A stretch of 21,704 bases of DNA from a virus, in the IMG/VR virus record IMGVR_UViG_3300049893_000105, positions 1 through 21,704 of that record; one strand, 5' to 3'. Position 1 is the first letter of the stretch; each line of letters starts with the position of its first letter. Positions 1 to 11,237 of the stretch are shown here, piece by piece. The translations under genes were made by a program, and so were the position numbers. Under the pieces are notes generated by a model. That model was not told where the DNA came from and searched no databases. It saw nothing but the letters and a program-made list of their open reading frames with translations.

Positions 1-3000
1 CCTTGGTAGGCCCTCTCAAAAATGCCTCGCGTTGAATCGAACGTCCCAATGGAGAACGCATTATGAACTTTCTCAACAAAGTCCAGAACCTTATCGAACG
101 CTGACGCGATTGCATTTGCCGCCTTCTGAAGTTTGGTCGTCCCTGGCTGGTAGCCGCCAAGCATTGCCTTAATCGGGTCCTGCCCATTAAGCCTTGCCGC
201 GCCATACTTCTGGAATGCCACTGCCTGGGTTTCAGCGTAAGCAATGCCCCCTCCTGCATCGTGGTTGGCTGCGAGGGCGGTCTTAAGTCGGGCCCAGTTG
301 TTGTCCAGCACCGCAGCCTCCTTGGGCGACAGGGCCAGGTACTGCACCCGATGCCAGGACTCGTGGAAGGCTGTCTCGTCCCATTCGCGGTCCGTGGCCT
401 GCAGCGCAGCCCGCAAGGTCATGGTGTCTTGCCGGATGTTGTAAGTGCCGCCTGAACGGGTCATGGTCTTGCCGTCACCACCCCATTCCTTGGGCTTGAT
501 CTTCTTGAGGTACAGGTCCTCAAACCGGACAGTCAGGCCGTCATCCAGGCCAGTCACCCGCTGGATGATCTCCATGGCCCGGGCCTGACGCCGCTCACGC
601 AGTTCGGCCTCCACCTCAAATGGACCAGGACTGCCGTCGTCCAGGGAGATGCGGGTGGGTGGCTGGATGGACTCCAAAGCAACGCTGGGTGGCTGGCTCA
701 GCAACGGCGTGCTGGTGTCGTACTGACCAACCCCAAACATGTCCTGCTGGCTGGTGGCATTGGCATCCATGGCGTTGGCCGCTCGACTGCGCTCCAGCTG
801 CCGCAGTTCCTGCTGCCATGCCGCAGCACCGGCTTCATCGCCCTGGGCCTTGGCCTGCTCCAGCTGCTGACGGGCCAGCTGGGCACGTTCGTCCAGGGTG
901 CCAGCCTTCTGGACTGTCCAGGTGTCCAGCATCCCGTTGGCTTTCTTCTCCTCCAGGGGCATGTCGTCATACCCAATCGCCTTGCGTTGGGCTTCCAGCG
1001 CCACCTGTTGCTGAATGGCGTCCTGTTGGGCGTAGTGATCCGCCAGACGCACCTCGTCCTCCAGGGCCAGCTCAGGGTTGGATGGATCCCTCGGTGGATC
1101 CGGCAATTCCGGTAGCGGCGCCTCGCTGGGTCTCACCTCACCGTTCTGGATGGCGCGGGTGATGACTGCCTTCTTCAGTTCATTGCGTTGGTCGGGCAGC
1201 AACGGGCCGGGCTCTGCCGGGGCTTCCGGCACCGGCTCCTCAACCGGTGCCTTGGGTGTTGGTGGCGCTGCTTCAGCGGCCTGCTCCAGCTGGGCCAGGA
1301 TCCGCTTCTTGATGACATCAGGCTTGGCACCACCAGCAATCTCAGCAGCACCGTCATTCAGCAGCTGACTGATCGGCGTCTCGGCCATGTACTTGGTCCG
1401 GTCAAACTCAGCCAGGACCGATTGGGCAACGCTGGCAGCGTCCTGCACCTGGCTTTGATTGACCTCGGTGCCGCCCTTCTCGGCCAGCTTGGCTGCGTTT
1501 TTATTACGCCCGACCTTCTTGAACAGGTTCTTGTTGCTGGTCAGGTCAGCCCTGACCTTGGCTGACAGCTCAGCCTTGATGATCGTGGTGTCGATGTAGT
1601 CGTCAAACCCAGGCAGCCGGGTCTGACCATCGTCTGCCTTCACCTTGGGAGCAGTGCTGGCCATCTGAGTCAGCTCAGCGAAGCCCCGCTCAGTGATGTC
1701 CCGGCCTTCCATCAGCTGGTAGACCCGGACCATGGCTTCCGCGTCCAAACCGCTGCCACCCAACGCCAACGCCCGACCCAGGGGCAGCTCACCGTTGACT
1801 GCTGCCTGAAACAGGTTGTCGGGCAGCTTGCTCAGCGCCAGGCCCTGCGTACCCAGGCCCGACTGCAGGGGGATACCAGCAGCTTCCAGGCCAGCTGGAT
1901 CGGTAATGCCCAGCTCACGGATCACCTTGGCTGCGTCAAACGCAGTACCAGACCCTTTGGCAATGTTGCTCAGGGCTCCAACGGTTCTGGCTTGCTCTGG
2001 CGTGTCAGCAAGGATTTCCTTGGTTAGGACAGTCGGGATGCCCAACTCCTTTGCCTTGGCCAGGCTGTTGTGACCGTTGACGACGTAGGTCTTGCCATCC
2101 TTCGGGCTGGTCCAGACCTCGTTGACCTGCTCAAGGTCGGTGTTCCACTTGGTCACCCCTTCCAGGGAATTGCCCTTCTGTTGGCCCTGGGCGTTGACGC
2201 CGGCCTTGTACTGGAACGTCACCGGGTCAACCCCAAGCTCACCCACGGGTGTCGCCGTGACGCCTTCCTGCAACCGGCTGGGCAGCACGGTCTGACCCTC
2301 GGCCTGCAATGCCTTCAGGCCATCAATCACATCCCCGCGAGTGAACTCCTCAAACTCACGCCCGGTCAGGCCCTGCACCTTCTCAAACAACCGTGGGCTG
2401 TTCTGGGGTGCAGCCAACGACAACAAGGTGTCATTCGGCAGCTGCTGCCACTGCGCGTCATAGGCCACGGCAGGGTTCGCCAGGTTCTGAGTTGGAGCAC
2501 TGACCCCGTCAACACCCAACCCTTCCTGCACCTGGAAGTTGGCCTTCTGATCCCCCAGGGTCCGGTCCAGCTCCGGCAGGACAGGGCCAGCACCTGCTGC
2601 CATCTCCTGCAGCCGCTGGTCATCCAGCCGGTCCAGCGCCTGAACGGCGACATCCACCTCAGGCAGTGATGGGTCATAGACCGGGGCCTCCTCTTCAGGA
2701 CCAAGCAGCATTTCCTCGGCCTGCTTGGCCGTAGGGGGCGCTGCGGCAGGCTCTGCAGCAGGTGCAGGGGTTGGTTCAGCCTTGGGTGCAGGGGCAGCCG
2801 CAGGGGCCTCTGGTTCTGGAGGAGTGGCGGCCTTGGCCTCTGGGGTGAAGTCGTGGGTGCCATCAGCTTCAGCCTGAACGCCGTTCTCCTTGGTCCAGTT
2901 CCTGGCATTCGCTGTTTCCTGCGCAGCACGCCCTTCCCGGATGCGACGGGTGATGTTGTTCAGACCCTTGCCAACACCCAGGCCGCCCAGACCAAACGCA

Positions 3001-3797
3001 ATCTCGACCCCGGCATTGGGCAGCAATGACTTGCCCAGCGCCGAGACCATGTCATCCGTTGGCTGCACCGCAAATGGTGCGTTCTCACCAAACGCATTGG
3101 CCGGGTTGCCTTGGCGGTTGTCAGTCAGCGCCGTGCTGACAAAGGACTCGGTGCCAACACCTGCCGTCCACCGCAACGCCTGCTGCACAACGGGAGACAG
3201 GCTCTTGAATGCTCCCTGGGTGAACGCATTGGCACCAACCAGCCTGCTGCCTACCACGCCACCAATGGCACCAGTGGTGAACTGGTTGCCCATCTGCTGC
3301 CAGAACAGGTCTTCCGGCCTGCGCTGCTCTGGCTGCGGCAACTGCATGGCTGTGTTCAGACCGCGCTCTGCACGAGTGATGGCACGCCCTACAGGGCTGC
3401 TGGCCGGATCTGCAGCCTTGCCGCCACTTGCAAAGCGCTGACCCGTGTTGACCGCCAACTTGGCTGCATCAAGCGGCACCTGTGCTGCGCCCCTGATGAT
3501 GTCCCGCTGCGAGGGTGTAGATGTCCCAAGTGCTCCCTTGGCATCCATGTAGATCGGCAACACGCCGACCCGACCCATGTACCGGGTGCCCTTGTTGATG
3601 CGCTGGATCTGCTGCTGCCGATACTTCGCCTCATTGGCCAGACCAGCAGGTGTGACATACCACCACCACGGCCTGGCCGGTGCTGCCTTGGGCGGTGCCT
3701 TGCTGCCACCAGAAGGCTTGGTGGTGGCTTCAGCCACTGCAGGGCTGGATTCACTGGCGCTCAACCCACGCCGATTCCGCCGCTGCTCAGGGGTCAT
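1..3797 (-). CDS. gp16-like giant ejection (internal core) protein with ParB-like and HExxH motifs, partial
   Basis: An open frame of at least 1265 codons runs from an ATG at 3797 to the left edge without a stop, so the C-terminus is missing. This is the only ATG after the in-frame TGA at 3809-3807. Position after the gp15-like gene and size match T7 gp16, an internal core protein ejected into the host at infection. Seen in the sequence: a basic N-terminus; Ala/Pro/Glu-rich linker at about residues 319-360; a ParB/sulfiredoxin-like motif YVVNGHNSLAKAKELGI around residues 571-587 (NGH at 574-576); a second Ala/Pro/Glu linker near residues 850-870; a Gln/Ala-rich probable coiled coil at about 960-1060; and HESWH at 1145-1149 (bases 351-365), a zincin HExxH motif, with Glu1189 in AYAETQAVAF as a possible third zinc ligand. 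No SLT/lysozyme domain is seen at the N-terminus, unlike T7 gp16. Ribosome-binding site is weak. Ejection role is inferred from synteny; enzyme activities are inferred from motifs only. Confidence 0.88.
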   Translation of the reverse strand, partial: MTPEQRRNRRGLSASESSPAVAEATTKPSGGSKAPPKAAPARPWWWYVTPAGLANEAKYRQQQIQRINKGTRYMGRVGVLPIYMDAKGALGTSTPSQRDIIRGAAQVPLDAAKLAVNTGQRFASGGKAADPASSPVGRAITRAERGLNTAMQLPQPEQRRPEDLFWQQMGNQFTTGAIGGVVGSRLVGANAFTQGAFKSLSPVVQQALRWTAGVGTESFVSTALTDNRQGNPANAFGENAPFAVQPTDDMVSALGKSLLPNAGVEIAFGLGGLGVGKGLNNITRRIREGRAAQETANARNWTKENGVQAEADGTHDFTPEAKAATPPEPEAPAAAPAPKAEPTPAPAAEPAAAPPTAKQAEEMLLGPEEEAPVYDPSLPEVDVAVQALDRLDDQRLQEMAAGAGPVLPELDRTLGDQKANFQVQEGLGVDGVSAPTQNLANPAVAYDAQWQQLPNDTLLSLAAPQNSPRLFEKVQGLTGREFEEFTRGDVIDGLKALQAEGQTVLPSRLQEGVTATPVGELGVDPVTFQYKAGVNAQGQQKGNSLEGVTKWNTDLEQVNEVWTSPKDGKTYVVNGHNSLAKAKELGIPTVLTKEILADTPEQARTVGALSNIAKGSGTAFDAAKVIRELGITDPAGLEAAGIPLQSGLGTQGLALSKLPDNLFQAAVNGELPLGRALALGGSGLDAEAMVRVYQLMEGRDITERGFAELTQMASTAPKVKADDGQTRLPGFDDYIDTTIIKAELSAKVRADLTSNKNLFKKVGRNKNAAKLAEKGGTEVNQSQVQDAASVAQSVLAEFDRTKYMAETPISQLLNDGAAEIAGGAKPDVIKKRILAQLEQAAEAAPPTPKAPVEEPVPEAPAEPGPLLPDQRNELKKAVITRAIQNGEVRPSEAPLPELPDPPRDPSNPELALEDEVRLADHYAQQDAIQQQVALEAQRKAIGYDDMPLEEKKANGMLDTWTVQKAGTLDERAQLARQQLEQAKAQGDEAGAAAWQQELRQLERSRAANAMDANATSQQDMFGVGQYDTSTPLLSQPPSVALESIQPPTRISLDDGSPGPFEVEAELRERRQARAMEIIQRVTGLDDGLTVRFEDLYLKKIKPKEWGGDGKTMTRSGGTYNIRQDTMTLRAALQATDREWDETAFHESWHRVQYLALSPKEAAVLDNNWARLKTALAANHDAGGGIAYAETQAVAFQKYGAARLNGQDPIKAMLGGYQPGTTKLQKAANAIASAFDKVLDFVEKVHNAFSIGTFDSTRGIFERAYQ

Positions 3798-3859: not shown

Positions 3860-6823
3860 TTATCTGCCCAGCCGTTGCCTCCGGGCTTCAATCAACGCCT
3901 GCCTGACCCGTGCTGCCTTGATTGACGCACGGTTGCCTCCCTTGTCGCCGTCATACCGCCCACGACCATTTGGCCTCTGGACTGCTGCCCATTCAGCCGC
4001 CAGGTCCTCGTGCGCTGCGTTCAGGTCATTGCTTTCACCCTTGAGGTAAGCAGCCAGGGCAGGGCGCTTCCCGCCCGTCGCCAGGCCCCAGAACATCCGG
4101 GTCTGGTTTTCTGGTGACATCGGGGCATTGGCTGGCAACCCCGCATCACGCCTGGCGCGAGCCAATACCCGAGGGGTGAACTGGTACGCACCAACGGCAA
4201 AAACCTCGCCACGCGCCTGCATCGCTTCCACTTGGCCAATGGTCATGCCGGTCAGGTTCAACGTGCCCGCTGACCCAGTGGTGCCGTAATTCACGCTGTT
4301 CCAGCCGCCCTCGCCAGAGGAAATCAGGGCAGGCAACCCACCAGCATTCCCGCCACCGCCACCACTACCCGTAAAAGGGGTGTCAGCACCAGGCCAGCCT
4401 CCCCCGCCCTGGCGGAGTGCAACCCGTGGTGAACCGGCGGCACTGGCTGGAGCAGCGCCCGTGAGGGCATCAATCGTTGTCAAGGCCACTTGATTGGCAA
4501 TGGCGGCAATGTTCGGGAATTGCTTGCTCATCGCTGCACGGGCAACCTCAGCATTGGCCGTCCCACCCATCGACAACAGCTGCTGGCGAGCCTTCTTCTC
4601 CTCAGCAGGGGTCCAGTCACCACCTTTGTAGTTGGGGTACTTCTCCAGCTGCCGCTGGATGAAGTCCCACGCATTGGGTGCTCCGGCATCACGCCATGCC
4701 CGTTCAAACTTGGCGCTCTGCGCCTTGCCGTCAATCGCGTTGAAGATCACATCACGCACTGACTGCAACGCCATCACCGGCTTGGTTCGGTACTGACGCA
4801 ACTCCACAGCACGGTTGGGAATGTCATCCAACTGGTTGATGGAATAAACCTTCGGGACTGGGCCAGCTGGCTTTGGCTTGCCATCAGGGCCCAGGTCCAC
4901 CGGCTTGATCGTCCCGTATGGGTCCACTGATGGACTGTTGGGATACGCCTGGCTGCCAGGGAACAGGTACTGCAACGCCTCCTTGTCGTTCTTGCCGTAC
5001 TCGTCAATCGCCTGCTGGGTGACAGCACGCACCTCCGTTTCATTCAGCTTGCGCTTCAGCTGTGCCTCCTTCTCCTTGATCCGGTTGTTGACGTGATCGG
5101 TGTAAGCCAGACGCTGACGGCGTTCTGACTCCTCCCGGTCAGGTTTGCCCATTGCTGGGTTGATGACCGTGTAGTTCCGCTGGATGCGGGCACTGATGTT
5201 GTCATTGATGATCTTGTCGCGGGTGGATTTATACCCGCTCATGTCCTGCACTTCCTTCTCCTTGCGCTCGATCTCCCCGTAGGCCTGGGTAACAAACTGC
5301 CTGGCAGCCTTCTGGTCCTTCATCCCAGCAGCGAGAGCATCAACCTTCTCTCGCTCATTCTTGGCATTGAAATCAGACCCATACAGCTGACCAAGCCCAG
5401 CCAGGTATCGCGTCGGAGCGCCAGGGTCGTCCTTCTCAAAGACCAATTCACTCGCCAGGTCACTGGCTTCCTTGAATGCCTTGCGTGCTGCCTGCATCGC
5501 AATAGGCGATGGCGGCCTGCCTGCTGCCGTCTCCTCTTCCACCCATCTCTGCAAGGCAGCAGCAGCAGCAGCAGCCCGATCAGGGCCTGGCGGCATGTCC
5601 TGAATGGCGTTGCCAATCGCGGCCTCAGCCCCATCCCTGAACTGCTTGACCTGGTTCTGCCTTGCCGTAAAACCAGCCTGCTCGTACTTGATCCTGGAAT
5701 CCAGCGAGTCCTGGCTGTAGAGCTGATCCCAGGTCAGATACACCGGTTGCCCGTCAGCACCCACCGTCGGCTTCCCATCAGGACCGCGCAATGGCTCGCC
5801 TGATCGGATCAATCCAATCATCTGGTGCAACGCCTGGTCGCCGTTGTAATTGGCATCAGCCTTGAGGCTTTCATACGCCTGCCGTGCCCACTTGCTGGCC
5901 ATGCCACCAGGCCCTGCCTTCTGCAGGAAATCCCTGGACATGTTGTTCAGCTTGATGCCAACAGCCGTCCAGTACAGCTGCTCTGAATCTTTCCCCCTGG
6001 TATAAACCTTGCCGTCCAGCTCAACCGATGCTCCCTGCATACGGGACAGGTTCATCTGGTTACGCAGCAACTGCGTCAGCTGACGAGGCATCGTCTCGTC
6101 GTAATACTTGACTCGATCCTCCTGGATTCGTGTTGCCTCCTTCTCGCTGGCCTTCTCAATAGCAGGAGCCGTGTACTTCTGGAAACCAGGCGAGGAGTCA
6201 TTGACTCCAAACTTCCCAGTCACCTGGGCGACGTACTCAGCCCGGATCTTGTTCAGTGCTGCAAAGCCCTGGTCCGGCGCGGTGTAGTCAATCTCCCCAC
6301 TACGGGAGTTGACGTAGGCAGGCATCCCAAACTCAATCTCCTGCGCCGCCAGGCGGCTGCGAGCACGCTGCGCCCCAATCTCCCGGTATGGGTTCAACCC
6401 CCACATCAATGACCCGGCCTTGGGGTCTTTCGCACCAACGGCACGGGCGCCCTGGGCATAGTTGGTCTCACCCACCTCGGTGGATTCATCCACCTTCAGC
6501 TGAGCAGTCCGGTACTGCTGCATGAACTCAGCTTCACCCTTGGCCATCTGCCACTGGGCGAACTGCAAACCAGCTGTCTGCGCTGTCTCAATCAGCTCCT
6601 TGCTGAATGGCCTCAATGCATTGGACAGCTCCTCAAAGCTGTTGGCACCCTGCACATAGGTGGTGCCACCGGTGTTGATCGCACTGACGCCCTGCACCCC
6701 AGGTAGCTGGGCAGGTTGCTGCCCCGGCTGGGCCACCTGGTAATTGACCGGTGAGATGAACGCATCAACCGGTTTGGCTGCTGTGTTCAGCTGGCCAACA
6801 GGGAGCTGTGTGTCGCGTGCCAT
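3860..6823 (-). CDS. gp15-like ejection protein with C-terminal lysozyme-like domain
   Basis: 987 residues; ATG at 6823 lies two bases after the gp14-like stop, with AAAGG upstream. By position and size it corresponds to T7 gp15 (747 residues), an internal core protein ejected with gp14 and gp16 to form the trans-envelope DNA channel. The first ~800 residues are Gln/Ala/Lys-rich and mostly helical in character, with many charged heptad-like stretches and a run of seven Ala at bases 5556-5576. A Gly/Ala/Ser-rich linker (about 795-830) leads to a lysozyme-like domain at about 832-975: SSGEGGWNSVNYG with candidate catalytic Glu838, then VGAYQFTPRVLARA and LAAEWAAVQRPNGRGRY, the order seen in phage muramidases/transglycosylases. 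It probably cuts peptidoglycan locally during DNA entry. In T7 this kind of domain is at the N-terminus of gp16, not here. The structural role rests on synteny, the hydrolase on motif resemblance. Confidence 0.9.
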   Translation of the reverse strand: MARDTQLPVGQLNTAAKPVDAFISPVNYQVAQPGQQPAQLPGVQGVSAINTGGTTYVQGANSFEELSNALRPFSKELIETAQTAGLQFAQWQMAKGEAEFMQQYRTAQLKVDESTEVGETNYAQGARAVGAKDPKAGSLMWGLNPYREIGAQRARSRLAAQEIEFGMPAYVNSRSGEIDYTAPDQGFAALNKIRAEYVAQVTGKFGVNDSSPGFQKYTAPAIEKASEKEATRIQEDRVKYYDETMPRQLTQLLRNQMNLSRMQGASVELDGKVYTRGKDSEQLYWTAVGIKLNNMSRDFLQKAGPGGMASKWARQAYESLKADANYNGDQALHQMIGLIRSGEPLRGPDGKPTVGADGQPVYLTWDQLYSQDSLDSRIKYEQAGFTARQNQVKQFRDGAEAAIGNAIQDMPPGPDRAAAAAAALQRWVEEETAAGRPPSPIAMQAARKAFKEASDLASELVFEKDDPGAPTRYLAGLGQLYGSDFNAKNEREKVDALAAGMKDQKAARQFVTQAYGEIERKEKEVQDMSGYKSTRDKIINDNISARIQRNYTVINPAMGKPDREESERRQRLAYTDHVNNRIKEKEAQLKRKLNETEVRAVTQQAIDEYGKNDKEALQYLFPGSQAYPNSPSVDPYGTIKPVDLGPDGKPKPAGPVPKVYSINQLDDIPNRAVELRQYRTKPVMALQSVRDVIFNAIDGKAQSAKFERAWRDAGAPNAWDFIQRQLEKYPNYKGGDWTPAEEKKARQQLLSMGGTANAEVARAAMSKQFPNIAAIANQVALTTIDALTGAAPASAAGSPRVALRQGGGGWPGADTPFTGSGGGGGNAGGLPALISSGEGGWNSVNYGTTGSAGTLNLTGMTIGQVEAMQARGEVFAVGAYQFTPRVLARARRDAGLPANAPMSPENQTRMFWGLATGGKRPALAAYLKGESNDLNAAHEDLAAEWAAVQRPNGRGRYDGDKGGNRASIKAARVRQALIEARRQRLGR
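5556..5573. repeat. GCA trinucleotide repeat (6 units)
   Basis: Six tandem GCA units on the plus strand; on the coding minus strand they read as GCT alanine codons, giving a seven-alanine run in the gp15-like protein. Slippage here would change alanine number without breaking the frame. Confidence 0.6.
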
Positions 6824-6825
6824 GG

Positions 6826-7629
6826 TCAGCCTTTGATTTTGTTGATCTGAGAGTTCATGCTCAGGAAGCTGTTCACCCCACCAAGGATCCCGGTGCCCAC
6901 CGTCAGCCAGCCATTGCCGCCAGGCGCACCACCTGTCATCGAAGGTGGCGGTGGCATCACCATCGTGGGCAGCGGCGGGAACGGTGCCACAGGATCCATG
7001 TATGGCGTCCGCTCGTAGAACTGCTGGCTGTTGTACTGATTCAGGTAGGTCGTCATCGCTGCCAGCTGATCCCGGCTGTACTGACGTTCCTGGAACTTCT
7101 GACCCATCTGCATCAACGCGTTGTAATCCCCCGCCTGACGGGAGAAGTTGGCCACATACCGATCCATCGTCTGACCTTCCTGTCCTGCTGCCTGGTACGC
7201 CGCTGACTCCTGCAGCGACCGATAGCTGTACTGCTGCATTGCCACAGCCTCCTGCATCCCACGCTCCTGAAGCGCCTGCTGGATGGCAGCAGAGGACACA
7301 ATGAACTGCGTGCCAGCACCAGTGCGGGCTTCGGCCACACGCTGCGCCTGGGCCAGCTCCTTGGCAAACTCATACCCCCTGAGCTGACTCGTGTAGGCCA
7401 GCTGCTGGTTGTGGTTGACCGTGTCCCGCCAGTAGCCGTACTGACTGTTCAGGTTCTGCATTTGGGCATTCATGCCCGCCTGCCATCGGTTGAACTGCGA
7501 ATTGACGTTCTGGAATGCCGCCTGGTTCAGGTAGTCCTGCTTCTTGGCGTTGCTGTCGGCAATGCCCTGGAAGATCCCAAGGCCGCCGGTAAGGATCCCA
7601 ACGCCAGCGGAAATCGGATCAATGATCAT
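6826..7629 (-). CDS. gp14-like internal virion (ejection) protein
   Basis: 267 residues (T7 gp14 is 196). The ATG at 7629 overlaps the upstream stop as TGATG and is preceded by GGAGGG at good spacing. In T7, gp14 is ejected first and goes to the outer membrane, forming part of the DNA-entry channel. Seen here: an N-terminal Gly-rich hydrophobic segment (about residues 5-27, SAGVGILTGGLGIF...), long Gln/Asn/Ala/Tyr-rich helices (about 28-200), a Pro-rich stretch PFPPLPTMVMPPPP near 218-231, and a second Gly-rich hydrophobic segment near the C-terminus (GWLTVGTGILGGV). Two glycine-zipper-like hydrophobic ends around a polar helical middle fit a membrane-inserting core protein. Assignment combines composition with its place between gp13 and gp15 equivalents. 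Confidence 0.87.
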   Translation of the reverse strand: MIIDPISAGVGILTGGLGIFQGIADSNAKKQDYLNQAAFQNVNSQFNRWQAGMNAQMQNLNSQYGYWRDTVNHNQQLAYTSQLRGYEFAKELAQAQRVAEARTGAGTQFIVSSAAIQQALQERGMQEAVAMQQYSYRSLQESAAYQAAGQEGQTMDRYVANFSRQAGDYNALMQMGQKFQERQYSRDQLAAMTTYLNQYNSQQFYERTPYMDPVAPFPPLPTMVMPPPPSMTGGAPGGNGWLTVGTGILGGVNSFLSMNSQINKIKG

Positions 7630-8075
7630 CAGACCGCCCTCCAGAACGGGTGAAACAATGCAGCACTTGGCCCAAACGGTTCAGGTACTCCAACCTCAAA
7701 CCCCAACCACTGCAACCACCTCACGGACATTCGGTTCTTGGCATAGACATGATTCCCGATGGTCTTCCCCACTTGGCTGGCGCAATGCTGCACCCAGTCT
7801 CGGCCCTGGTGGCACAGCTGCAAACGCCTCGCCTTGGTGGCAGTCAACCCCTCAGTGCCAAGCAACCAGATCCGATCACCACAAACCCCTGTCACACCAA
7901 CCGGCTCGCCATCGCTGGTGACAATGCACCGGCAAATCTCACTGCTCAACCAGCTTTCAAACACCGCCTCATCACCTGGGATGTGGTGACTCAGCCAAAC
8001 CTCCGTCTTGTCGTCACTTCGCAGGTTGAGCGCAATGTGGCTGACCCGTTCAGCCGTTGGTCTGGCCCACCTCAT
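7629..8075 (-). CDS. gp13-like internal virion protein (GNAT-like)
   Basis: 148 residues from ATG at 8075, which overlaps the gp12 stop as ATGA; AGGT/GCGAGG lies upstream. The frame extends to a possible start at 8171, but that would overlap gp12 by about 100 bases. T7 gp13 (138 residues) is a virion-assembly protein with an acetyltransferase-like fold. Visible matches by memory: GVTGVCGDRIWLL parallels the GGNCGDQCWFV of T7 gp13, and YAKNRMSVRWLQWLGFEV parallels its NTSHIRFLKTIGAVF segment, the GNAT motif B pattern. Ends in ALFHPFWRAV. Whether it acetylates anything is unknown; the T7 protein has no proven catalytic role. Confidence 0.85.
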   Translation of the reverse strand: MRWARPTAERVSHIALNLRSDDKTEVWLSHHIPGDEAVFESWLSSEICRCIVTSDGEPVGVTGVCGDRIWLLGTEGLTATKARRLQLCHQGRDWVQHCASQVGKTIGNHVYAKNRMSVRWLQWLGFEVGVPEPFGPSAALFHPFWRAV

Positions 8076-10582
8076 TGCATCGACCTCGCTTTGCCTGCTG
8101 TCAAACCCACCCACTCGCAAGTGCTGAACTTGCAAGGGTGTGGGGTGCTGTTGCGAAGCTCCACCACACACCGCTCACCACGGCTCATGATCGGGATGTT
8201 GAACACCCCCTCGCTGTACTGCGGCTCGGTGGAATCAACCAGATCCGGCGACCCGATCCTGGCGTCACGCACACCGCTGACAGTGCCATCAAACCGGTAC
8301 AGACATTCACTGCGATGCTCTGGCAGTACATGCACATCGAAATACCCGGTCTCGTGATAGCGGAGCTTGGCCTGCCTCACCTGGGTGCGGATGGCATTGG
8401 CCGCAGCCTTCCCGCCACCGATCTCACGCATCACCTTGAACCGCGTGAAGCGATACCTGAACTCATACGGCTCACCGGCGTAGACCTCAGCCGCTGACCA
8501 GTCCCCCCGAGCCACGATGGTGTTCCCGCTGGTGGCTTCGCCCAGGCGGACGCCTGCACTGTTCAGGCCATAAAGGCCGGTGCCTGCAGGGAGACCACTC
8601 CACAACTCGGTCTTGGCCTTCACCCCATACGGCAAGGTGAACGTGGTCTTGTTGGTCACAGGGTCGTAGACACCCTTGGCCATCCGCATCGCAACCGGTG
8701 TCGCCGTGGTGGTGCTCACCCGTCGGTCCAGCAGCAGCGGATAACCAACCCCGCTGGTTGATGCCATCCGGTCCATCACCGGCACCATCTCCAGGTACAC
8801 CTCCTGGCCGTAGCGCATCAGGCAGTACAGGGTCTCGCGGATACAGACCACCTGCAGCACCTCGTCCACACCGTTGAACTCCCAGTGGCTCCAGCTGGAC
8901 TGGGCACGCTCAGCGCCCTGGCCCGTGTTGCGGAAGTACCACTTGTAGGTGTAGATCCGCTTCTGGTGGCCAGCCTTCCCGCTGATGGCGAACAGGGCAT
9001 TGCCCGTGTCGTTCACCGTCATCTTGAACACCCCGGATGGGATGTAGGCCGAGACATACCCCGTCAGGTCAGACGCATCAGCCGTCAGAGCAGTTCCCGC
9101 ACCGCGGACACTGAACTCACGGAACTGACTCCACTGCGAGTTGACCTGGCAGAAGATGATCCCGCCGCCCGCCTGCTGGGGTCTGACGTTGATGTCTGAC
9201 TCGAACTGGGTCAGCACCGTGATCTGCGCTGTCCGTGGTGTCAGCACCGTCTCCGCTGCATTGAAGCGGAACTGGTACTGAGCACTGAACAGGATCAGCT
9301 CATCCTGATAGGGAACGGCGTACTTGAGAACGGATACCCGGTTATTGCTAGCAACAACATCAATAGGGTCAGTATCCAGAACTGTTGTGACAGTCTCCGG
9401 GAAGAACTCGAAGAACTCCCGCACGCGACTGAGGATGACATTCTCATCAGCCAGGAACCCCAGACGGTTCTTGTAGATGAAGACATCATTGATGGGATAG
9501 CCAACAAAGCTAGGGTCTGGCGCAGTGTCGTAATCACCTGTTGTCCGCTGACCCCAAGCAGGAACCGTGATGCCAGCCGTTGCCGAGCCATCAGCTGGAC
9601 CAAACCAGAACTGACCATTCGGCAACCGGATCAGCAGATGGGGCATCGTTGACCCATCCAGCTTGTACTCCACACCAGGGCTCACCGTCTCAGACCATGT
9701 GCCCTCACCAAAGGCCCCAGACTTCGGCGTGAACTGAACGTAGTACCCGTCGAAGTTGTTGCCCGGATCCCCCGTGATCTCCACCTGATAGCCCTTCGGG
9801 GCAATGGTGGGCAGCTCGGTGAACGCCTGCACCTGGCTCAGAATCGCCGTGATGTCAGCGTTGGCCCTGGCATCACTGGCCGCCAGCGTGATCGGGTTGG
9901 CTGACTGCAGCCACAGCACTGACCCTGACCGGGTGACGGTCACACCTGTCACGCTGGCCAGGCCGGTCTTCAGCTGCTCAGCAATCTCAGCACTGCTGAT
10001 CCGGTTCTCGGTCACGGTGGTGCCGCTGCTCACCACTGGTGCCACAGCGGTTGTCACCTTGGCTTCAGTGCCGTTGACGTTGACCTTGTACTCCTGCCCA
10101 TAGTTGGCAGCCTTCACCCACACCAGCGCCTCATGCACCGTGGGCCTGGCCGTCACTGGTGCCACAGCAGGGTTCATCGCCACTGCTGTATTGGTGTTGA
10201 GGATGAAGGTGTAGTCCGCGATCGACTGCGCCCTGACCTGCTGACGTGCATCCGTCACGCTGGCCAGATAGCCGTAGCCACCAGGGGCGTTCACGGTCTT
10301 CTCACCGCCCTGCAGGTCAAACACCCTGATGCCGGTCTTGGTGATGACCGCCAGGTACTCCTCGGTGTTGTCCCGCAGGATCGTGTGGATGAACGCATCA
10401 CCAAACGGTGTGGCACTCACCCTGGCCAGCGTGTGCGTGCTGTCCCGCTTCCTCAGACCCTCAGCGATCGAAGAGACCGCATTGACCTGGATCTCAGCCT
10501 GGGTGGGATCACGCTGTGCATCCGGCTGCTGGCTGACCCCCTGGATCAATGAGGGGATCGTGTAAGAGACCAGATCAGCCAA
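8072..10582 (-). CDS. Tail tubular protein B, gp12-like (nozzle), TTG start
   Basis: 836 residues (T7 gp12 is 794). It forms the distal nozzle of the short tail. The N-terminus after the start, ADLVSYTIPSLIQGVSQQPD, carries the family hallmark GxSQQPD about 15 residues in. The TTG at 10582 is preceded by GGAGG eight bases upstream and sits inside the last codons of gp11, an 8-base overlap; the longer frame opening at 10660 would add 26 residues unlike the family start and overlap gp11 by 86 bases. The middle has many Thr/Val-rich beta repeats and FIYKNRLGFLADENV, a segment conserved in these proteins. The stop overlaps the gp13 start. Confidence 0.94.
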   Translation of the reverse strand: MADLVSYTIPSLIQGVSQQPDAQRDPTQAEIQVNAVSSIAEGLRKRDSTHTLARVSATPFGDAFIHTILRDNTEEYLAVITKTGIRVFDLQGGEKTVNAPGGYGYLASVTDARQQVRAQSIADYTFILNTNTAVAMNPAVAPVTARPTVHEALVWVKAANYGQEYKVNVNGTEAKVTTAVAPVVSSGTTVTENRISSAEIAEQLKTGLASVTGVTVTRSGSVLWLQSANPITLAASDARANADITAILSQVQAFTELPTIAPKGYQVEITGDPGNNFDGYYVQFTPKSGAFGEGTWSETVSPGVEYKLDGSTMPHLLIRLPNGQFWFGPADGSATAGITVPAWGQRTTGDYDTAPDPSFVGYPINDVFIYKNRLGFLADENVILSRVREFFEFFPETVTTVLDTDPIDVVASNNRVSVLKYAVPYQDELILFSAQYQFRFNAAETVLTPRTAQITVLTQFESDINVRPQQAGGGIIFCQVNSQWSQFREFSVRGAGTALTADASDLTGYVSAYIPSGVFKMTVNDTGNALFAISGKAGHQKRIYTYKWYFRNTGQGAERAQSSWSHWEFNGVDEVLQVVCIRETLYCLMRYGQEVYLEMVPVMDRMASTSGVGYPLLLDRRVSTTTATPVAMRMAKGVYDPVTNKTTFTLPYGVKAKTELWSGLPAGTGLYGLNSAGVRLGEATSGNTIVARGDWSAAEVYAGEPYEFRYRFTRFKVMREIGGGKAAANAIRTQVRQAKLRYHETGYFDVHVLPEHRSECLYRFDGTVSGVRDARIGSPDLVDSTEPQYSEGVFNIPIMSRGERCVVELRNSTPHPCKFSTCEWVGLTAGKARSMQ

Positions 10583-11237
10583 TGACCCTGCCTCCAAACG
10601 TGCCACGCAGCAGACCGCGACCAGCCACGTAGGTGGGGAACGGCCTGAGGCTGGGGCCACCGGTCAGGCTGTTTGGCTTGGCCTGGTCCAGCTCAACACG
10701 CATCAGCTCGGTCAGCGCCGACTGCTCATCCAGTGCCGTGTACTGCACCGCAGCTCGATCACCCAGCACACGGGCAGCGAACACCCGTGCAGCACGGATC
10801 GTCGTCCAGCGGTTGAACGCCTCCGGTGACTCGTCCCACTGCAGCAGCCAAACCACATCAGCCTGGATGGGGCAGACCGTGGGGTCGATCTTGTAGCTGC
10901 GTTCCCACAGGTCATACACCCGCTGGCCCCTGACGATGAACCGCCCATCCCACTGGTACGGGTTCACCGTGAAGTTCACCACGTTGGCCGGCACCACCAC
11001 TTCACCGGTTGCCGTGTCCCGCTCAAACGGGTACGCCTCCTCACGGTTCCAACTCCACCCACGGACCTGACCTTCGCGGTGGAACTCAAGGATCGTCCGC
11101 TCAGCCACTCGCGCATCCTGGATCTGCTGGTTGTCCAGCTGATCGACCGGCTGCTCACCGATGTTCTCCAGCAGCGTGTTCACTGCCTCCAGCAGGGTGG
11201 TCCTGCCAGGCGTCTTGCCTTGGTTCGACAGGCCCAT
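10575..11237 (-). CDS. Tail tubular protein A, gp11-like (tail adaptor)
   Basis: 220 residues (T7 gp11 is 196). It forms the ring joining portal to nozzle. The N-terminal TTLLEAVNTLLENIGEQPVDQLD motif (residues 13-35) is typical of the family (many members read LxAVNxxLxxIGexPV), followed by ERTILEFHREGQVRGWSWN and, later, AARVFAARVLGD. ATG at 11237 follows the terminator by 38 bases; the Shine-Dalgarno is weak (only GAGGG about 20 bases up). It is the first gene after the capsid terminator, as in T7, so its expression depends on read-through or on a promoter inside 11238-11275. Confidence 0.93.
   Translation of the reverse strand: MGLSNQGKTPGRTTLLEAVNTLLENIGEQPVDQLDNQQIQDARVAERTILEFHREGQVRGWSWNREEAYPFERDTATGEVVVPANVVNFTVNPYQWDGRFIVRGQRVYDLWERSYKIDPTVCPIQADVVWLLQWDESPEAFNRWTTIRAARVFAARVLGDRAAVQYTALDEQSALTELMRVELDQAKPNSLTGGPSLRPFPTYVAGRGLLRGTFGGRVIG

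What the first reader, a model, noticed from the sequence alone, without database searches (positions are those of the whole stretch)
1..2100. Last ejection protein carries ParB-like and HExxH zincin motifs: a polyvalent-protein-like injected effector
The gp16-position protein has YVVNGHNSLAKAKELGI (NGH at residues 574-576), the core of ParB/sulfiredoxin-type domains, and HESWH at 1145-1149 with a possible third ligand Glu1189, the pattern of zincin metallopeptidases. T7 gp16 has neither. ParB plus zincin modules joined by Pro/Ala-rich linkers are known from phage 'polyvalent proteins', thought to be injected with DNA to counter host defences. Having them on the ejected core protein of a T7-like virion would provide a delivery route.
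Basis: partly seen in the sequence, partly recalled or inferred. Interest (0 to 1): 0.78.

Follow-up and report, generated by a model that had tools for sequence, protein, structure and literature searches.

The report
Swappable-cargo protein in T7-like ejection cluster
The protein really does carry a ParB-type DNA-binding module and a zinc-protease module, and related phages swap such modules (including ADP-ribosyltransferases) in and out of the same virion-cluster gene, which suggests an exchangeable enzyme load that T7-like phages may inject together with their DNA.

Summary
The motifs are real and are two true domains.

Residues 505-830 fold confidently as a chromosome/plasmid-type ParB unit (N domain plus HTH). 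The best PDB matches are ParB, Noc and KorB (Foldseek probability 1.00).

Residues ~1060-1265 fold as a zincin (pLDDT 91). His1145, Glu1146, His1149 and Glu1189 are invariant, also in relatives found without using HExxH.

Three corrections:
- The gene is not the last ejection gene. In complete close relatives a ~1,100-1,180-aa protein lies between it and the fibre gene.
- The superfamily's near-invariant active-site Arg is Ser578 in this copy.
- Neither domain is fixed. Among 20 complete proteins from the same gene slot, found through the neighbouring nozzle gene, 10 carry neither domain, 7 zincin only, 2 both, 1 ParB only.

All share an N-terminal scaffold, most a conserved bridge and a G-x-C tail. 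Modules sit at two junctions. Phages ~92-97% identical in flanking DNA carry different cargo (one ART versus zincin plus another ART).

Best reading: a polyvalent protein on an internal-virion scaffold of T7-like (probably cyanobacterial) phages, ejected with the genome. Domain content is shown; ejection and targets are inferred. UniProt already names the closest recorded homologue a large-polyvalent-domain protein: a new variant of a known kind.

The parts
3..3797 (-). Slot protein: polyvalent protein, 1265 aa, C-terminus beyond the window
   Evidence: Open frame to the window edge. Complete relatives are 1,287-1,861 aa in the nearest lineages.
2316..3797 (-). N-terminal scaffold, residues 1-494
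   Evidence: Profile of this region (A9) also matches ParB-less and zincin-less proteins of the same slot.
1308..2285 (-). ParB module, residues 505-830: ParB N domain plus HTH (M) domain
   Evidence: AlphaFold pLDDT 89.7; Foldseek to ParB/Noc/KorB, probability 1.00, E 1.6e-4; profile versus PDB ParB/Noc E ~1e-3.
2070..2078 (-). NGH motif, residues 574-576 (ParB box II position)
   Evidence: Gly and His in 60/60, Asn in 54/60 domains; aligned with the GERR motif of Noc.
2064..2066 (-). Ser578 in place of the near-invariant Arg of the ParB/Srx pocket
   Evidence: 57/60 domains have Arg; Ser only in the window, L082 and L132 and in the near copy L002.
927..1205 (-). Bridge segment, residues 865-957 (..AIQNGEVRPSEAPLPELP...EEKKANGM)
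   Evidence: A profile trained only on ParB-containing proteins finds it in 19 of 28 ParB-less slot proteins, E 1e-16 to 1e-29.
693..914 (-). Linker module, residues ~962-1035 (..LARQQLEQ...SQQDMFGVGQYDTSTPLL)
   Evidence: Also in proteins of other phage types, L145, L147, L150, L153, L154, L156, E 1e-29 to 1e-34.
3..620 (-). Zincin metallopeptidase module, residues ~1060-1265
   Evidence: AlphaFold pLDDT 91.3, pTM 0.85, HExxH helix then Glu helix; zincins top the PDB list, weakly.
351..365 (-). HESWH, residues 1145-1149
   Evidence: HExxH kept in 59 of 61 aligned domains; the two exceptions are a truncated protein and a spurious 20-bit match.
231..233 (-). Glu1189, predicted third zinc ligand
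   Evidence: Invariant in 54/54 and not part of any scan pattern; lies on helix 148-164 of the model.
3860..6823 (-). gp15-position internal protein, 987 aa, with a C-terminal lysozyme-like domain (3881-4372)
   Evidence: Residues 829-980 match 'lysozyme-like domain protein' and virion proteins of other phages at 42-46%.
6826..7629 (-). gp14-position protein, 267 aa
   Evidence: Position and conservation in relatives.
7629..8171 (-). gp13-like internal virion protein
   Evidence: phrog_308 E 3.6e-26; PF11090 Phage_T7_Gp13 E 8.1e-5.
8072..10660 (-). Tail nozzle (gp12-like), context anchor
   Evidence: PF25675 Phage_nozzle E 1.5e-238.

Best explanation
The gene encodes a modular (polyvalent) protein built on a scaffold that belongs to the internal-virion cluster of T7-like, probably cyanobacterial, phages. 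The scaffold (N-terminal part, bridge, C-terminal G-x-C tail) is kept across the lineage. Functional modules are placed at two junctions: a ParB unit between scaffold and bridge, and zincin, ADP-ribosyltransferase and other modules between bridge and tail. Most likely the protein is packaged with the core proteins and ejected with the DNA. Inside the cell the zincin cleaves either the protein's own linkers, releasing the modules, or a host protein. The ParB unit binds the incoming DNA. Shown: domain folds, catalytic residues, conserved scaffold, module exchange. Inferred: packaging, ejection, cleavage targets, benefit at entry. In this copy the ParB unit probably binds DNA but handles CTP poorly or not at all, because the pocket Arg is Ser578 (inference).
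For: ParB fold. Zincin fold. Catalytic H, E, H, E kept in sets chosen without HExxH. Purifying selection (window vs L003: ParB dN/dS 0.25, zincin 0.21). Conserved gene order nozzle/gp13/gp14/gp15/THIS/~1,150-aa protein/fibre. Bridge found in ParB-less slot proteins; in L190, L233 and L187 scaffold and bridge meet within ~10 residues where the ParB unit would sit. ParB state changes at least 8-9 times and zincin state 10 times on the nozzle tree. Cargo exchange between near-identical phages (L100 vs L110, L099 vs L108). ART modules. The closest viral structural match is named a large polyvalent protein in UniProt. Precedents: ejected N4 vRNAP carries a conserved HExxH motif (PMC12633501); polyvalent proteins (PMC5512222).
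Against: No virion proteomics or ejection data for any member. Zincin Foldseek hits to PDB are weak (best E 0.08, probability up to 0.92), and zinc-site geometry was not measured. No Pfam or NCBIfam model matches the window protein; Pfam MPTase-PolyVal does not match this domain. Ser578 argues against normal nucleotide use by this ParB copy. Half of the nozzle-anchored slot proteins have neither module, so the modules are not needed for the virion or for basic infection.
Confidence: 0.66

Rival explanations
1. The zincin and ParB modules work during virion assembly, not in the new host: the zincin trims this or another internal protein before or inside the capsid, and the ParB unit helps to organise or package DNA.
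For: Phage P1 DdrB, a ParB plus MPTase protein, is processed before packaging (PMC5512222). The gene sits among head and core genes. The same ParB type lies next to head-protease and tail genes in another phage type.
Against: Module content is exchangeable between near-identical phages and often absent, unlike an assembly factor. ART modules in the same junction make little sense in assembly.
Confidence: 0.22
2. The modules are remnants: ParB and zincin folds kept as structural or spacer domains of a core protein, without enzymatic activity.
For: Ser578 replaces the near-invariant pocket Arg in this copy. The ENxQR nucleotide motif of ParB/Noc is SNIAK here (read from the alignment). Scaffold-only alleles exist.
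Against: All four zincin residues are invariant across dozens of divergent copies and dN/dS is ~0.2 in both modules; structural decay would spare no such tetrad.
Confidence: 0.1
3. The protein is not ejected; it is made late and acts in the infected cell (for example against superinfecting phages).
For: No proteomic evidence of packaging. ParB-like proteins with other roles are known (PMC5512222).
Against: Constant place between gp15-like and ~1,150-aa internal-type proteins, with a conserved scaffold even when all modules are missing.
Confidence: 0.1

Closest known systems
Phage polyvalent proteins (Iyer et al. 2017, PMC5512222), e.g. P1 DdrB
   Same: Several unrelated enzymatic modules (ParB, zincin MPTase, ART) in one large late protein near virion genes; zincin most common; UniProt labels the closest recorded homologue of the window protein (A0A6S4PA15) as large-polyvalent-domain protein.
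   Different: ParB unit is N domain plus HTH and no DdrB-ParB match appeared; the zincin does not match Pfam MPTase-PolyVal; modules are set in a conserved scaffold of a T7-like internal cluster, which the 2017 paper does not mention (no hits for T7-like, cyanophage, internal virion).
T7 internal core proteins gp15/gp16 (ejectosome)
   Same: Gene neighbourhood and order around nozzle, gp13-like and fibre.
   Different: No sequence homology of the flanking proteins to T7 gp15/gp16 found; T7 has no such extra protein between gp15 and gp16.
N4-like virion RNA polymerase (ejected)
   Same: Giant ejected podovirus protein with a conserved HExxH motif next to another activity (PMC12633501).
   Different: No RNA polymerase here; smaller; scaffold with optional modules.
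Prochlorococcus phage P-SCSP1 large internal-type protein (2563 aa in P-SCSP1g)
   Same: ParB at 453-769, zincin at 1127-1318, ART-like module at 1542-1689.
   Different: Longer. Authors guessed, from size and position, that P-SCSP1a g20/g21 are internal virion proteins and could not annotate them (PMC9860041); that one of them is this gene follows from gene order.
Synechococcus phage S-SRP02 p046 (cultured)
   Same: Same slot, scaffold and bridge, G-x-C tail; followed by a homologue (p047) of the ~1,150-aa protein.
   Different: No ParB, no zincin: a scaffold-only allele; annotated 'chromosome segregation ATPase-like'.

Membership tests
ParB (N + HTH) fold | ParB N-domain fold followed by helix-turn-helix domain | tested here: met
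   Foldseek to ParB, Noc and KorB chains over ~200 residues, probability 1.00; profile hits.
ParB/sulfiredoxin superfamily | Conserved active-site Arg in box II | tested here: not met
   Ser578 in the window; Arg in 57 of 60 relatives. Family membership rests on the fold and the relatives; activity of this copy is doubtful.
ParB CTPase | ENxQR nucleotide motif (box III) | tested here: not met
   SNIAK at the aligned position; Noc has ENLQR.
DdrB-like ParB of polyvalent proteins | Match to that subfamily | tested here: inconclusive
   No Pfam match at E<=1 for window or relatives; no dedicated profile-profile test.
Zincin metallopeptidase | HExxH plus downstream Glu on the next core helix | tested here: met
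   Invariant tetrad; helices at the right places.
Zincin metallopeptidase | Zincin fold | tested here: met
   pLDDT 91.3; best PDB matches are zincins but E 0.08-0.2; viral IrrE-like, SprT-like and polyvalent matches.
Zincin metallopeptidase | Zinc binding and proteolysis | not testable with these tools
   Needs biochemistry; metal-site distances were not measured because coordinates are not given.
Pfam MPTase-PolyVal | Score over the family cut-off | tested here: not met
   No match in the window or tested relatives at this domain.
Polyvalent protein | Two or more functionally disparate domains in one large polypeptide | tested here: met
   ParB plus zincin here, ART in relatives.
Polyvalent protein | Genomic context of late or virion genes | tested here: met
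   Between gp15-like and ~1,150-aa internal-type gene.
Polyvalent protein | Injected with DNA | not testable with these tools
   No proteomic or ejection data found.
T7 gp16 | Last internal core gene before the fibre, with sequence relation to gp16 | tested here: not met
   A further conserved gene follows. The window protein itself was not profile-compared with gp16; the neighbour at that place shows no homology.

The most novel reading that the evidence does not exclude
T7-like cyanophages possess a dedicated hypervariable cargo site inside an ejected internal-virion protein: constant scaffold and tail deliver whichever effector modules (ParB, zincin, two ART types, others) recombination has placed there, comparable in logic to polymorphic toxins but in a podovirus ejectosome.
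Probability: 0.45. Interest if true: 0.82.

Novelty: new variant of a known kind. Interest (0 to 1): 0.63.

Why it matters
Internal proteins of T7-like phages are usually treated as parts of the DNA-ejection channel. Here a gene in that cluster carries optional enzymatic modules that are exchanged between nearly identical phages, as expected of effectors under arms-race selection. It gives a domain annotation to a class of large proteins in cyanopodoviruses that their discoverers could not annotate, and offers cultured pairs (P-SCSP1 phages with modules, S-SRP02 without) in which injection by the T7-type ejectosome can be tested.

Tried and rejected
- 'Portal protein': the only PHROG match of the slot protein is phrog_21 (portal), but it covers only the ParB part (profile 1018-1324). 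Rejected as an annotation.
- Pfam and NCBIfam scans of the window protein: nothing.
- gp16 equivalence: T7 gp16 vs the ~1,150-aa neighbour and T7 gp15 vs the gp15-position protein by hhalign, no signal (T7 given as single sequences). PDB profile searches with both also gave nothing meaningful.
- The C-terminal ~1,100 aa of the 2,000-2,500-aa relatives as a fusion with the ~1,150-aa protein: not detected by hmmsearch.
- Simple module loss as the explanation of scaffold-only alleles: the window's nearest nozzle relative L219 (88-91%) has a scaffold-only slot protein, but its gp15-like and slot proteins are only ~30% identical, so whole-gene replacement by a divergent allele is more likely there.
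- Conservation of HExxH in loci found with an HExxH-containing pattern was discounted as built in; the count was repeated on sets found by nozzle and by ParB.
- A search anchored on the ~1,150-aa family could not be run (too divergent); the nozzle was used instead.

Full report
What is there. The window is a 21.7-kb virus fragment. Its left end holds, on the minus strand, a T7-like structural block: portal, scaffold, capsid, tail tube A, nozzle (PF25675, E 1.5e-238), a gp13-like protein (phrog_308), a gp14-position and a gp15-position protein, then the ORF in question, 3797 to 3, 1265 aa and open at the window edge. In shuffles of the same protein HExxH appears in 0.26% and NGH in 2.5% of cases.

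Relatives. Close relatives came from IMG/VR and the phage records: L003 at 74%, Nohivirus MedDCM-OCT-S31-C1 (L010) at 39%, and Prochlorococcus phage P-SCSP1g. All full-length ones keep both motifs. Wider searches with the two domains gave 66 and 366 loci. Because those scans used the motifs themselves, conservation was recounted on loci found only through the nozzle or only through the ParB domain: H, E, H and Glu1189 are kept in 9/9 and 17/17 untruncated zincin domains. Two non-matching rows in that count are a protein cut by its contig end (L187) and a spurious 20-bit match (L107).

Domain 1, ParB. Alignment of 57-60 sequences, AlphaFold model with pLDDT 89.7. Foldseek against PDB lists ParB (Caulobacter, Myxococcus and others), Noc and KorB with probability 1.00, E from 1.6e-4. 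Profile search of PDB sequences gives ParB and Noc at E ~1e-3. The match runs over the N domain and the HTH domain. The box II residue that is Arg in 57 of 60 copies is Ser578 in the window, and also in L082, L132 and the near copy L002. The ENxQR motif of Noc reads SNIAK in the window. I infer that DNA binding may remain while CTP handling is impaired.

Domain 2, zincin. Alignment of 54 sequences: the invariant columns are Gly1117, His1145, Glu1146, His1149 and Glu1189. The model has pLDDT 91.3 and pTM 0.85, with HExxH on helix 97-116 and the Glu on helix 148-164. PDB matches are headed by zincins, but weakly (best E 0.08, probability up to 0.92). Viral matches include IrrE-like, SprT-like and many polyvalent proteins, the best being the Nohivirus homologue, named 'Large polyvalent protein associated domain-containing protein' in UniProt (E 1.6e-11). 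Metal-site distances could not be measured. Pfam MPTase-PolyVal does not match. Selection is purifying in both domains (window vs L003: dN/dS 0.25 and 0.21).

Place in the genome. In relatives the order is nozzle, gp13-like, gp14-like, gp15-like, this protein, a ~1,100-1,180-aa protein, fibre, all in one direction. So it is not the last ejection gene in this lineage. In some distant relatives with 2,000-2,500-aa versions the fibre follows directly. Neither neighbour shows homology to T7 gp15/gp16, so 'gp15-like' and 'gp16-like' are positional terms only.

A scaffold with optional modules. A profile of the N-terminal part and a profile of the bridge (residues 865-957), the latter trained only on ParB-containing proteins, also match proteins of the same slot that have no ParB: the bridge is found in 19 of 28 (E 1e-16 to 1e-29). 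In L190, L233 and L187 the scaffold match ends about 10 residues before the bridge, exactly where the ~345-residue ParB unit sits in others. The cultured Synechococcus phage S-SRP02 has such a scaffold-only protein (p046, 1016 aa) followed by a homologue of the ~1,150-aa protein (E 2.6e-66). Of 20 complete slot proteins found by nozzle alone, 10 have neither module, 7 zincin only, 2 both, 1 ParB only (a few are near-copies). On a nozzle tree of 48 rows ParB presence changes at least 8-9 times and zincin presence 10 times (quick method; one row, L043, has a very long branch).

Module exchange. L100 and L110, from different metagenomes, are 96.6% identical over 7.4 kb upstream and 92% over 5.6 kb downstream. 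Between the bridge (98% DNA identity) and the tail they share only a 47-bp tag: L100 has an ART there, L110 a zincin and a different ART. L099 and L108 differ in the same place (92% and 97% on the two sides). The ART1 modules match Pfam PARP (E 9e-6) and PARP structures in PDB (E 0.03). ART2 modules match ART-PolyVal and DUF3990 only weakly (E ~0.01), so ART2 is less certain. A third ART type (PF01129, E 3e-10) occurs with the same ParB domain in a different, integrase-bearing phage type (L150). The window's own linker module (962-1035) is also shared with that phage type.

Whole-gene replacement. The window's closest nozzle relative (L219, 88-91%) carries a scaffold-only protein with only ~30% identity in the bridge and in part of the gp15-like protein. 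There the whole gene pair seems to have been replaced, not a module deleted.

How it most likely works. Ejected proteins of podoviruses reach the cell with the DNA, and the N4 virion RNA polymerase, which is ejected, has a conserved HExxH motif in its C1 domain (PMC12633501). Polyvalent proteins have been proposed to be injected and to be processed by their zincins (PMC5512222). By place, scaffold and cargo exchange, the same reading fits here. Packaging and ejection have not been shown for any member: the P-SCSP1u cryo-EM paper as searched does not model internal proteins, the P-SCSP1 genome paper guesses internal virion proteins by size and position and could not annotate them, and the S-SRP02 paper gives no proteomics in the searched text.

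Verdict. The motifs and domains are confirmed, the third ligand is right, 'last ejection protein' is wrong for this lineage, and the counter-defence role is untested. The added finding is the scaffold with two cargo junctions and exchange between near-identical phages.

Noticed in passing
L100 9558-10374 vs L110 9396-10860: Cargo swap between phages 92-97% identical on both sides; a ~47-bp conserved tag (encoding ..PAPVRPEPLQL..) lies within the exchanged stretch and recurs in L099, L108, L109.
   Followed up: yes
Slot proteins, C-terminus; next gene's N-terminus: Nearly all slot proteins end in G-x-C or similar (EGC, GGC, GSC), and the next protein begins MxNC with an invariant Cys4. May partly reflect an overlapping ribosome-binding site (GGAGG) or may be a real feature.
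   Followed up: partly
3881-4372: Lysozyme-like domain at the C-terminus of the gp15-position protein, shared with tape-measure and virion proteins of other phages.
   Followed up: partly
1308-2285: phrog_21 ('portal protein') matches only the ParB-like part, so automatic annotation may call such proteins portals.
   Followed up: yes
L145-L156: Same ParB domain and the window's linker module in another phage type with integrase, head protease and tail genes; some carry R-S-E type ART and repeated Cys-rich stretches (CSTGYGCGSxCIS).
   Followed up: partly
7629-8171: gp13-position protein; the S-SRP02 counterpart is annotated as an acetyltransferase.
   Followed up: no
IMGVR_UViG_3300044681_000374, bases 112-456: Separate small ORF (179 aa) with a strong MPTase-PolyVal match (E 5.5e-40) in the contig of L021, a second zincin outside the slot protein.
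   Followed up: no
window vs L219: gp15-like and slot proteins are divergent alleles (~30%) in phages whose nozzles are 88-91% identical: the two genes seem to be exchanged together.
   Followed up: partly
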